Part shown: piece by piece, positions 11,738 through 16,516 of the stretch
Position numbering within the stretch: the first letter of the stretch is position 1
Layout: the number at the start of each line of letters is the position of its first letter
Assembly (NCBI GenBank): GCA_948146395.1
Contig: OX411543.1
Coordinates: 70,546,948-70,610,947, forward strand
Length of the DNA stretch: 64,000 nucleotides
Direction: 5' to 3'
DNA from: Fragum whitleyi
Lineage: Eukaryota > Mollusca > Bivalvia > Cardiida > Cardiidae
The notes under the pieces: model-generated
Told to the model about the DNA's origin: nothing
Seen by the model: the letters and a program-made list of their open reading frames with translations, nothing else
Databases searched by the model: none
Program-made: the position numbers and the translations under genes

Positions 11738-11743
11738 GTTTTA
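11738..11743. repeat. Target-site duplication, left, of foldback element
   Basis: GTTTTA stands here and again at 16511-16516, directly outside the inverted tips TATGGAACGCC. The match can be read as 8 bp (GTTTTATA) if the first TA of the left tip is counted as target. Confidence 0.6.
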
Positions 11744-12129
11744 TATGGAACGCCACAGCTGTCATATGTTTTGAACAGTAGTGTTAATATGCCCATTATC
11801 TGTATTAAAATGTCTAAATCAAGTGTAATTATACTCAAATGTAGTGTTGATTTGTCCGACCTATATGATATAATGTCAAAATGAAGTCTGGTTATTTGCA
11901 AAATGAGAATTGACTTGTCTAAACCAAAACTTATCATCCCAAAAGGTACGTTGACTATGGCAACATTTTGTGCTGACCTGTCTTAACATTATCTGAGTGT
12001 GTCAAACGATGGTGTCGTTAAGTCAAAACATGTTGTTGACTTGTCTAAGAATTACATTATTATTTGAAAACGTAGTGTAATTACATCTAAATAATGTGAT
12101 GGCTTGCCTTAGCACTATCATATTATGGT

Positions 12130-14273
12130 GACTGGTTAATGCATTACGTTAGTATGTCAAAAGGAAGCATTGATATGTCAAAATAACACAGTGCTATATT
12201 CAAACATGGTCTTATTATGGTAAAAGGTAATGTGGTTCTGTCGAAACAATATGTTGACTAGTAAGAACGTGGGCTTATTATGTTCAAATGTAGTGTCATT
12301 ATGTTCAAGAAATGTGCTAACTTTGGTAAAAACGAGTTATTATGCAAATAGTAAAATTTCTTATGTTAAAAAATAGCGTTAATTTGTCTACGTTTTATCT
12401 TATTTTGTGCAAAGGAAGTGTGGTCATGCCCAAATATCGTGTTGACTTGTCTAAATAGTATGTTATCATGTCGAATTGTAGTGTGATTAAGTCAAAACGT
12501 AGCGTTGACTGGTTAATGCATTACGTTAGTATGTCAAAAGGAAGCATTGATATGTCCAAATAACACAATGCTATTTTCAAACATGGTCTCATTATGTTAG
12601 AGGGTAAGGTGGTTCTGTCAAAACAATATGTTGACTTGTAAAAACACGGGCTTATTATGTCCAAATGCAGTGTCATCGTGTTAAAGAAATGTGCTAACTT
12701 GGGTAAAAACGAGTTATTATGCAAATAGTAAAATTGATTATGTTCATAAATAGCGTTAATTTGTCTACGTTTTATCTTATTTCGTTCAAAGGAAGTGTGG
12801 TCATGCCCAAATATCGTGTTGACTTGTCTATATAGTATGTTTTCATGTGGAATGGTAGTGTGATTAAGTCAAAACGTAGCGTTGACTGGTTTATGCATTA
12901 CGTTAGTATGTCAAAAGGAAGCATTGATATGTCAAAATAACACAGTGCTATATTCAAACATGGTCTTATTATGTTAGAGGGTAATGTGGTTCTGTCAAAA
13001 CAATATGATGACTTGCAAGAACATGGGCTTATTATGTCCAAATGTAGTGTCATTATGTTCAAGAAATGTGCTAACTTTGGTAAAAACGAGTTATTATGCA
13101 AATAGTAAAATTTCTTATGTTAAAAAATAGCGTTAATTTGTCTACGTTTTATCTTATTTTGTGCAAAGGAAGTGTGGTCATGCCCAAATATCGTGTTGAC
13201 TTGTCTAAATAGTATGTTATCATGTCGAATTGTAGTGTGATTAAGTCAAAACGTAGCGTTGACTGGTTAATGCATTACGTTAGTATGTCAAAAGGAAGCA
13301 TTGATATGTCCAAATAACACAATGCTATTTTCAAACATGGTCTCATTATGTTAGAGGGTAAGGTGGTTCTGTCAAAACAATATGTTGACTTGTAAAAACA
13401 CGGGCTTATTATGTCCAAATGCAGTGTCATCGTGTTAAAGAAATGTGCTAACTTGGGTAAAAACGAGTTATTATGCAAATAGTAAAATTGATTATGTTCA
13501 TAAATAGCGTTAATTTGTCTACGTTTTATCTTATTTCGTTCAAAGGAAGTGTGGTCATGCCCAAATATCGTGTTGACTTGTCTATATAGTATGTTTTCAT
13601 GTGGAATGGTAGTGTGATTAAGTCAAAACGTAGCGTTGACTGGTTTATGCATTACGTTAGTATGTCAAAAGGAAGCATTGTTATGCCCAAATAACGCAAT
13701 TCTATATTCAAAAATGATCTTATTATGATCAAAGGTAATGTTGTTCTGTCAAAACAATTTGTTGACTTGTCAGAACATTGGCTTATTATGTCGAAAGGTA
13801 GTGTCGTTATGTTAAAGAAATGTGTTAACTTGGGTAAAATCGAGTTATCATGCGAAGAGTAGGCTTGGTTTTGTTCAAATATTGTGTTGATTTTTCTATG
13901 CATTAACTTATTTTGTTAAAAGGAAGTGTAGTCATGGCCAAACATCGTGTCGACTTGTCTCTACAGTATGTTTTCATGTCGAATTGTAGTGTGATTAAGT
14001 CTAAACGTAGCGTTGACTGGTCAATGCATTGCCTTATTATATCAAAAGGAAGCATTGTTATGCCATGAATACACGTTGATATATTTAAACATACTCTTTT
14101 TATTTTAGAAAATAATATGGTTCTGTAAAAACAATATGTTGACTTGTCAGACCATGGGCTTATTATGTCCTAAGGTAGTATAATGGCGTTCAAGAAATGT
14201 GTTCTCTTGTGTAAAACCGAGTTATCATGCGAAAAGTAAGATTGATTTTGTTAAAATATTGCGTTAATTTGTC
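12130..14273. repeat. Left-arm 377-bp higher-order tandem array
   Basis: GACTGGTTAATGCATTACGT and its variants recur at 12130, 12507, 12884, 13261, 13638 and 14015, exactly 377 bp apart. Within each unit similar blocks recur about every 63 bp, so one unit is six sub-repeats. Units at 12507 and 13261 look identical by eye and 12884 resembles 12130, which implies a recent duplication of a 754-bp dimer. Units towards the centre are more diverged. Confidence 0.85.
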
Positions 14274-16135
14274 GCTTCGTTTTGACTTAATCACACTACA
14301 ATTCAACAAGACAATATACTGTAAAGACAAGTCAATACGACATTTTTGCATGACAGCACTTCTATTGAACATAATAAGGTAATACATAGACAAATTAACG
14401 CAATAATTGAACTAAACCAAGCTGACTCTTTGCATGATATCTTGTTTTTTATCCAAATTAGCACATTACTTGAACATCGCACTGCCCTTGGACATGATAA
14501 CTCCATGTTTTGACAAGTCAACATATTGTTTTGACAGAACAACATTACCATCTTACATTAAAAGATTATGTTTAAATATATACACGTGTAATTTTGGCAT
14601 AATAACGCTCCCTTTTGACACAATCAGGTAATACATTGACCAGTCAGGGCTACGTTTTGACTTAATTACACTTCAATTCGACATGATAACATATTGTATA
14701 GACAAGTCAACACAATATTTGGGCACGACCACACTTCCTTTGAACAAACTAACTTTATACGTACACAAATTAACGCAATATTTGAACAAAATCAATCTTA
14801 CTCTTCGCATGATAACTAGTTTTTTTAGAAACATAAACACATTTCTTGAACATCATGGCATTACATTTTGACAAAATAAGCCCATGTTCTGACAAGTCAA
14901 CATATTGGTTTTGACAGAACCACATTTCCTTCTAACATAATAAGACCATGTTTCAATAAAGCATTGCGTTATTTGCACATAACAATGCTTCCCTTTGACC
15001 TACTAAAGTAAGGCATTGACCAGTTAACGCTTCGTTTTGACTAAATCACACTACAATTCGATATGATAACATACTGTATAGAGAAGTCAACACGATGTTT
15101 GGCCATGACTTCACTTCCTTTGAACAAAATAAGTTATTGCATAGAAAAATCAACACAATATTTGAACAAACTCAAGCCTACTCTTCGCATGATAACTCGA
15201 TTTTACCCAAGCTAACACATTTCTTTAACATTATGACACTGCCTTTGGACATAATAAGCCCGTGTTCTGACAAGTCTACATATTGTTTGGCAGAACAACA
15301 TTTCCATCTTATATAATAAGACCATGTTTTAATATAGCATTGCGTTATTTGGGCATAACAATAATTTCTTTTGACATACTAAAGTAATTCATTGACCACT
15401 CAACGCTACGTTTTGACAAAATCACACTACAATTCGACATGATAACATACTGCATAGACAAGTTAACACGATATTTGGGCATGACCACACTTCCTTTGAA
15501 CAAAATAAGATAAAACGTTGACAAATAAACGCAATATATTAACATAATAAATCTTACTCTTAAGTTGATAACACAGTTTTACACAAGAGAACACATTTCT
15601 CGAACATGATGACACTACCTCTAGACATAATGAGCCCATGTTCTTACAAGTCATCATATTGTTTTGACAGAATAACATTACCTTCTATCATAATAAGAAC
15701 GATTTTGAATAAAGCATTGTGTTATTTAGACATAACAATGCTTCCTTTTGACATACTAACGTAATGCATAAACCAGTCAACGCTACGCTTTGACTTAATC
15801 ACACTACAATTCGACATGATAACATACTGTATAGACAAGTCAACACGTTATTTGGGCATGACCACACTTCCTTTGAACAGAATAAGATAAAACGTAGACA
15901 AATTAACGCTAGTTTGAACATAATCAATGTTACTATTTGCATAATAACTCGTTTTTACCAAAGTTAGCACATTTCTTGAACATAATGACACTACATTTGG
16001 ACATAATAAGCCCATGTTCTTACAAGTCAACATATTGTTTTGACAGAACCACATTACCTTTTACCATGATAAGACCATGTTTGAATGTAGCATTGTGTTA
16101 TTTGGACATAACAATGCTTCCTTTCGACATACAAA
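14274..16135. repeat. Right-arm 377-bp tandem array, inverted
   Basis: It is the same unit as in the left arm in opposite orientation. The landmark AAGCCCATGTTCT and its variants recur with CCC at about 14503 (diverged), 14881, 15259, 15635 and 16011, so the period is 376-378 bp. Units are more diverged from one another than the outer left-arm units, with no pair that looks identical. Confidence 0.8.
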
Positions 16136-16510
16136 AGTAGTGCATTGGCAAGCCAACACATTATTTAGACGTAATTACACTACGTTTTTAATAATGATGT
16201 AATTCTAAGACAAGTCAACACCATGCTTTGCCTTAACGACACCACCGTTTGACACAATCAGATAATGTTAAGACAGGTCAGCACAAAATGTTGCCATAAT
16301 CAACGTACCTTTTGGGATAATAAGTTTTCGTATAGACAAGTCAATACTCATTTTGTATGTAACCAGACTTCCTTTTGACATTATATGATATAGTTCGGAC
16401 AAATCAACACTATATTTGAGCATAATTACACTTGATTTAAACATTTTAATATAGAAATTGGGCATATTAACACTATACTTCAAAACAAATGACAGCTGTG
16501 GCGTTCCATA

Positions 16511-16516
16511 GTTTTA
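16511..16516. repeat. Target-site duplication, right, of foldback element
   Basis: GTTTTA here matches 11738-11743 and directly abuts the right tip. Confidence 0.6.

What the first reader, a model, noticed from the sequence alone, without database searches (positions are those of the whole stretch)
11738..16516. Giant foldback element: 2.2-2.5-kb inverted arms made of 377-bp higher-order repeats, with a target duplication
Two arms of more than 2.2 kb face each other with almost no loop. Matching tips (TATGGAACGCC) abut a GTTTTA direct repeat on both sides, and the arms are six-part 377-bp tandem units. The sequence thus shows a mobile unit, not just a satellite. Foldback/Galileo-like elements of flies share this design, but I know of no such element with this repeat in molluscs. 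It has no coding capacity, so a partner transposase must exist elsewhere.
Basis: partly seen in the sequence, partly recalled or inferred. Interest (0 to 1): 0.9.

Follow-up and report, generated by a model that had tools for sequence, protein, structure and literature searches.

The report
Foldback transposon built of 21-bp repeats
A 4.8-kb stretch of DNA without genes looks like a jumping element made of two mirror-image arms of a 21-letter repeat; its design is known from flies and worms, but its ends look like those of a different transposon group.

Summary
At 11744-16510 lies a 4,767-bp unit with identical 22-bp inverted tips, flanked on both sides by GTTTTA; it is the only one of 629 inverted pairs in the window with a flanking direct repeat of 6 bp or more. 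Apart from its 25-bp end caps, the interior is a 21-bp array (224 units in the fit; 200 of 222 steps exactly 21 bp), nested into 63- and 377-bp units, whose orientation flips once near 14270-14288. One strand folds into a single hairpin, 82% of bases paired arm to arm, around a 262-nt loop of the same repeat. No ORF matches a known domain. The arms partly share unit order but differ at 7% of sites in the outer 0.8 kb, which argues against an assembly artefact; the left arm carries a recent 754-bp duplication. Best reading: a non-autonomous foldback DNA transposon moved in trans, with the repeats as possible accessory binding sites. TA..TA ends plus a 6-bp duplication match IS3EU/GingerRoot; a 10-bp, Mutator-like duplication fits equally well. 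Only this copy could be examined (the own-genome search did not complete), so mobility, superfamily and host (mollusc) stay unproven.

The parts
11738..11743 (+). Left copy of the presumed target site duplication GTTTTA
   Evidence: Sequence; only 1 of 629 inverted pairs in the window has 6 bp or more of flanking direct repeat
11744..11768 (+). Left end cap, 25 bp, outside the 21-bp register; begins TATGG
   Evidence: cap not like the 21-bp unit beyond chance (best 14 of 25, reached by 14% of 500 random 25-mers)
11769..14269 (+). Left repeat array: 119 units of 21 bp in the fit (a few score poorly); 377-bp higher-order units L1-L6 from 12134
12285..12926 (+). Recent duplication: 642 bp identical to 13039-13680 (offset 754 bp, two 377-bp units)
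13039..13680 (+). Second copy of the 642-bp identical stretch
14012..14273 (+). 262-nt loop of the predicted hairpin; still left-oriented repeat, no unique spacer
   Evidence: Fold, arm alignment
14270..14288 (.). Point where repeat orientation flips: last plus-strand site starts at 14249, first minus-strand site at 14288
   Evidence: 68 plus sites and 56 minus sites of at least 12 bits, cleanly separated; 0 elsewhere in window
14288..16485 (-). Right repeat array: 105 units of 21 bp in the fit, higher-order units R1-R5
16486..16510 (-). Right end cap, 25 bp; outermost 22 bp identical to the left tip
16511..16516 (+). Right copy of the presumed target site duplication GTTTTA; sequence continues TATGC, allowing a 10-bp reading

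Best explanation
It is one insertion of a non-autonomous foldback DNA transposon. Shown: perfect 22-bp inverted tips, a flanking 6-bp repeat, two long arms made of a phased 21-bp array in opposite orientation, no recognisable coding. Inferred: a transposase made elsewhere cuts at the tips and pastes into a staggered target cut, leaving the duplication; the 21-bp repeats, which recur about every two helical turns and so face one side of the helix, act as extra binding sites that raise affinity or help bring the ends together, as shown in print for two sites in Galileo arms. Inferred: the outer arms descend from one ancestral arm copied in inverse (template switching in a hairpin is a likely route) and change length by unequal exchange, most recently by 754 bp in the left arm. 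Most likely mobilising group: IS3EU/GingerRoot (about 45%), otherwise Mutator-like (about 30%).
For: Tips 22 of 22. Of 629 maximal inverted pairs with exact arms of 12 bp or more within 20 kb (245 of them inside the element, 384 not), 1 has a flanking direct repeat of 6 bp or more; random chance of a 6-bp flank match is about 0.0005. 21-bp chain 2690 against 129-223 in controls; 200 of 222 steps are exactly 21 bp. 124 strong sites in the element, 0 in 58,680 positions on either strand outside it (the matrix was trained on the element). Mirror order: L5 and R3 are reciprocal best (0.888, support 99/98) and R1 is nearest L1 (0.928); taking out the 754-bp duplication puts L5 opposite R3. Fold: 1959 of 2053 pairs are arm to arm. 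None of 17 of 17 ORFs of 68 aa or more that overlap the element reached a Pfam cut-off. Printed signature of IS3EU: TA..TA termini always, TSDs usually 6 bp (PMC10045372, passages). Two oyster satellites are tabulated as similar to IS3EU (CgiSat35, CgiSat47; PMC8268682, passage). Galileo arms bind the transposase's DNA-binding domain at tandem repeats (PMC3688188, passages).
Against: Only one copy was seen, so movement is inferred from one pair of ends. No empty site, second copy or partner transposase was found; the own-genome search did not complete. The right flank repeats TATG, so a 10-bp duplication with asymmetric ends is as simple. Other groups also make 6-bp duplications (Polinton). 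In the unit tree R1 joins L1-L4 as a group (91/93, not at the strong level), R2 has no partner (nearest L3, 0.873), and L6 and R5 group only weakly (88/90), so single-arm origin rests mainly on L5/R3 and the outer tips. Binding at the 21-bp repeats is untested. The cap resembles the unit no more than chance. One control stretch also had some AA/TT power at 10.5 bp (3.6 against 11.2 and 7.5 in the arms).
Confidence: 0.83

Rival explanations
1. Mutator-like foldback: the true duplication is 10 bp (GTTTTATATG), the element starts GAACGCC on the left and carries an extra CATA on the right, comparable to nematode Tm1 with its asymmetric end motifs. (A sub-reading of the best explanation, not exclusive of it.)
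For: GTTTTATATG is present on both sides. Most described foldbacks seem to be Mutator, and Tetris has 8-10 bp duplications (PMC4079207, passages); Tm1 has mostly 9-bp duplications and asymmetric ends (PMC3169594, passages).
Against: It needs the right-end CATA to be the exact inverse of the left TATG by chance; symmetric tips are the commoner case (established knowledge).
Confidence: 0.3
2. An inverted satellite: a tandem array that was turned on itself by replication template switching, never mobile; tips and flank repeat are coincidence.
For: The interior is pure tandem repeat with higher-order units and a recent 754-bp duplication, as in satellites; foldback repeats can become satellites (PMC4079207).
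Against: Both arms end at the same 25-bp cap, which lies outside the repeat register, and exactly there a 6-bp flank repeat sits.
Confidence: 0.1
3. Assembly artefact: an inverted duplication made by the assembler or by amplification.
For: Long inverted repeats are hard to assemble (general knowledge).
Against: Arms differ at 56 of 769 sites in the outer 0.8 kb plus four indels of 1-29 bp and at 15% of columns overall; artefact copies would be near identical. The two flanks are different.
Confidence: 0.03
4. The repeats are not binding sites but a passive product of slippage and unequal exchange; the element moves by its tips alone. (Rival to one part of the best explanation only.)
For: Tandem expansion of arms without function is expected of any repeat; the 754-bp duplication shows it happens here.
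Against: The 21-bp step is kept in 200 of 222 steps although units are diverged, and the 10-mer TTGACTTGTC recurs 15 times in the arms and 0 times in the rest of the window; both could still be inheritance.
Confidence: 0.4

Closest known systems
Foldback (FB) of Drosophila melanogaster (details recalled; cited as the type in the Tm1 and Tetris passages)
   Same: Long inverted arms made of short nested tandem repeats, most copies without coding (recalled)
   Different: FB is Mutator-type with about 9-bp duplications (recalled); here 6 bp on the symmetric reading, and the unit is 21 bp
Tetris, Drosophila virilis (PMC4079207, passages)
   Same: Non-autonomous foldback with tandem repeats in arms of up to 1,735 bp; its repeats also form satellite-like arrays
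   Different: About 220-bp repeats, a flanking domain of up to 866 bp and a middle domain; 8-10 bp duplications
Galileo (PMC3573991, and PMC3688188; passages)
   Same: Long repetitive arms with extra binding sites for the transposase; the two arms of a copy can differ in repeat number
   Different: P superfamily, 7-bp duplications, arms of 18 bp to about 1.25 kb, with about 210-bp repeats in one group
Tm1 of root-knot nematodes (PMC3169594, passages)
   Same: Arms mostly of a short (13-15 bp) tandem unit; the two arms of one element on average 93% alike
   Different: Mostly 9-bp duplications, asymmetric 7-bp terminal motifs, and in some groups a histone-hairpin motif or a transposase gene between the arms
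IS3EU/GingerRoot superfamily (PMC10045372, passages)
   Same: TA..TA termini and 6-bp duplications on the symmetric cut
   Different: The passages read do not describe foldback arms; no transposase is known for this element

Membership tests
Foldback-type DNA transposon (architecture) | Long inverted terminal arms | tested here: met
   Arms of 2268 and 2237 bp, 84.5% of alignment columns alike
Foldback-type DNA transposon (architecture) | Arms made of internal tandem repeats | tested here: met
   21/63/377-bp hierarchy
Foldback-type DNA transposon (architecture) | Target site duplication at exact ends | tested here: met
   GTTTTA on both sides; 1 of 629 pairs
Foldback-type DNA transposon (architecture) | Several dispersed copies at different sites | tested here: inconclusive
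   One copy in the window; own-genome search unanswered in 17 of 17 tries; 0 exact tip hits in viral contigs and genome contigs, neither of which is an animal collection
IS3EU/GingerRoot | TA..TA termini | tested here: met
   TATGG...CCATA on the symmetric cut; criterion from PMC10045372
IS3EU/GingerRoot | 6-bp target site duplication | tested here: inconclusive
   6 bp on the symmetric cut, 10 bp on the asymmetric cut
IS3EU/GingerRoot | Related integrase-like DDE transposase in an autonomous partner | not testable with these tools
   No domain in the element's ORFs; genome search unanswered
Mutator/MULE foldbacks (FB, Tetris, Tm1) | 8-10 bp target site duplication | tested here: inconclusive
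   10 bp only if the right end carries four extra bases
Galileo (P superfamily) | 7-bp target site duplication | tested here: not met
   On the symmetric cut the best flank match is 6 bp; an asymmetric cut could hide another length
Galileo (P superfamily) | P-type transposase with THAP domain | not testable with these tools
   No domain in the element's ORFs; partner not searchable

The most novel reading that the evidence does not exclude
The first foldback element of the IS3EU/GingerRoot superfamily, reduced to two 25-bp caps and a single helix-phased array of more than 200 transposase or host-protein sites (21 bp, two turns) in mirror orientation, showing that foldback architecture evolved independently outside the Mutator and P groups.
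Probability: 0.3. Interest if true: 0.62.

Novelty: new member of a known kind. Interest (0 to 1): 0.45.

Why it matters
Foldback-like elements have caused natural chromosome inversions (Galileo) and seeded satellite DNA (Tetris), and why unrelated transposons grow long repetitive arms is open. If the IS3EU reading holds, it adds an independent case of that convergence. The 21-bp phasing gives a direct prediction: one protein face, one site every two turns. The element also suggests, in one copy, how arms arise as mirror copies and then drift apart by unit exchange.

Tried and rejected
Coding in the arms: ORFs of up to 115 aa exist, as expected where 21 and 63 are multiples of three, but none of the 17 ORFs of 68 aa or more that overlap the element reached a Pfam cut-off (three weak matches far below cut-off: PF25563, PF15917, PF10186), and a 1-bp-short step in 9 of 11 higher-order units breaks the frame. 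In the whole window I scanned 32 of 145 such ORFs; none reached a cut-off; 113 were not scanned.

Empty site from the neighbouring palindromic repeat: the joined flanks were compared with the window, but that repeat ends at about 11726-11731, 12-17 bp before the element, so it is no test.

Origin of the 21-bp unit from the tip: not supported. Methylation decay: 4 transitions at CpG-containing sites among 56 differences, not pursued.

Relatives: exact tip or unit patterns gave 0 in viral contigs and 0 in genome contigs; these are viral and prokaryote collections, so it means little.

Literature: the paper search answered 3 of 12 times; a joint search for foldback and IS3EU did not complete, nor were those with bivalve or mollusc terms. 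So I cannot say that such an element is not in print. Of the papers I saw passages only, the rest as listings.

Full report
Observation. Window 11744-16510 (4,767 bp) is bounded by 22-bp tips that are perfect inverted copies and occur nowhere else in the window. Both ends abut GTTTTA. As a control I listed every maximal exact inverted pair with arms of 12 bp or more within 20 kb: 629 pairs (245 inside the element, 384 not), of which one, this one, has a flanking direct repeat of 6 bp or more; the only pair with 5 bp lies inside the element. A 6-bp flank match has a chance of about 0.0005 in this sequence. The arms, 11744-14011 and 14274-16510, align at 1929 of 2283 columns.

Anatomy. Beneath them is a 21-bp unit: a matrix fitted along the arms places 119 units on the left and 105 on the right, 200 of 222 steps being exactly 21 bp; four of the 224 units score below zero. 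Three make 63 bp, eighteen less one base make 377. The chain scores 2690 from a chosen seed; ten other stretches of the window, partly overlapping and 3.7 kb long against 4.8 kb, each with the best of eight random seeds, give 129-223. AA/TT steps show power at 21 bp (11.5 left, 9.0 right; one control stretch 0.5) and at 10.5 bp (11.2 and 7.5; control 3.6). Sites of 12 bits or more: 68 on the plus strand starting at 11811-14249, 56 on the minus strand at 14288-16465, none in the rest of the window (the matrix was trained on these arms). So orientation flips once, with no unique spacer, and everything but the 25-bp caps is array. The 10-mer TTGACTTGTC occurs 8 times in the left and 7 times in the right arm and 0 times in 118,200 positions elsewhere; the full palindrome TTGACTTGTCAA occurs once.

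Fold. Taken as one strand with RNA energies, the element forms one hairpin: 1959 of 2053 pairs join the arms, 82% of bases, -2820 kcal/mol; the innermost arm-arm pair is 14011-14274, leaving a 262-nt loop of repeat. No shuffled control was run; the arm alignment already implies this fold.

History. Among 377-bp units, L5 and R3 are reciprocal best (0.888; support 99/98), R1 is nearest L1 (0.928) though in the tree it joins L1-L4 as a group (91/93), and L2 equals L4. An exact 642-bp match at offset 754 bp shows a recent duplication of two units in the left arm. Without it, L5 would lie opposite R3, as in a mirror. So at least the outer arms look like copies of one arm. Against a simple picture: R2 has no partner (nearest L3, 0.873); L6 and R5 are 20-26% from every other unit and R4 14-22%; L6 groups weakly with R5 (88/90) while its highest identity is to R4 (0.803). 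The outer 0.8 kb differ at 56 of 769 sites. That divergence, and the different flanks, speak against an assembly artefact.

Coding. All 17 ORFs of 68 aa or more that overlap the element were scanned with Pfam and none reached a cut-off; in the window as a whole 32 of 145 were scanned, with none. The element has no evident gene.

Mechanism. I take it as a non-autonomous transposon cut and pasted by a transposase acting in trans at the tips. This is inferred from one copy. In Galileo, the transposase's DNA-binding domain was shown to bind at two further sites in tandem repeats of the long arms, and the authors propose that multiple sites give specificity (PMC3688188, passages). A site every two turns, all on one face, would suit the same role here; that is inference. 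The rival, passive expansion, is not excluded.

Which family. IS3EU families always have TA..TA termini and usually 6-bp duplications; GingerRoot likewise has 6 bp and mostly TA..TA; Polinton too makes 6 bp (PMC10045372, passages). TATGG..CCATA with GTTTTA fits the first two. But the right flank reads GTTTTATATG, and so does the left end, so a 10-bp duplication with an unpaired CATA at the right end is equally simple. That would fit Mutator-type foldbacks with 8-10 bp duplications (Tetris, PMC4079207, passages; Tm1, PMC3169594, passages, which also has asymmetric ends). A few more copies would decide. Galileo's 7-bp duplication (PMC3573991, passages) is not met on the symmetric cut.

A lead from print. 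In the table of the Crassostrea gigas satellitome, 2 of 52 satellites are marked as similar to IS3EU (CgiSat35, 690 bp; CgiSat47, 129 bp), and one, CgiSat43, has a 21-bp monomer without a listed transposon relative (PMC8268682, passage). The authors say that outside Helitrons such similarity is fragmentary, and that most of the satellitome is Helitron-linked. I could not compare sequences.

Limits. The genome search did not answer in 17 of 17 tries, so copies, empty sites and partner were not sought in the source genome. Joint searches for foldback and IS3EU, and for foldback in bivalves, did not complete, so absence from print is not claimed. One oyster satellitome paper was checked: its single mention of foldback is a citation of Tetris (PMC11136912).

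Verdict. A real, well-formed foldback element, most likely a new member of a known kind; its superfamily is open and potentially new for foldbacks.

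Noticed in passing
11622-11731; also near 20461, 21648, 28643, 31095, 43596, 49512, 57760, 62612: A short (about 130 bp) near-palindromic interspersed repeat, about ten copies in 64 kb, pairs 71-88% alike; one copy ends 12-17 bp left of the foldback element.
   Followed up: partly
19798, 22890, 25773, 27861, 31345, 35751, 58825, 63320: A dispersed repeat of up to about 450 bp, eight copies (some partial) in both orientations, pairs 66-81% alike.
   Followed up: no
7180-8190 and 37188-37495: Tandem arrays of related 156-bp units in opposite orientation, about 70% alike between the two places.
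   Followed up: no
52125-52207: tRNA-Ser (AGA) gene, 64.7 bits in Rfam, also called by ARAGORN; a second ARAGORN call, tRNA-Asp at 8871-8946, has no Rfam support at the gathering score.
   Followed up: no
39114-40930: Cluster of partly overlapping direct repeats of 0.09-0.85 kb, 65-79% alike, not listed as a long array by TRF.
   Followed up: no
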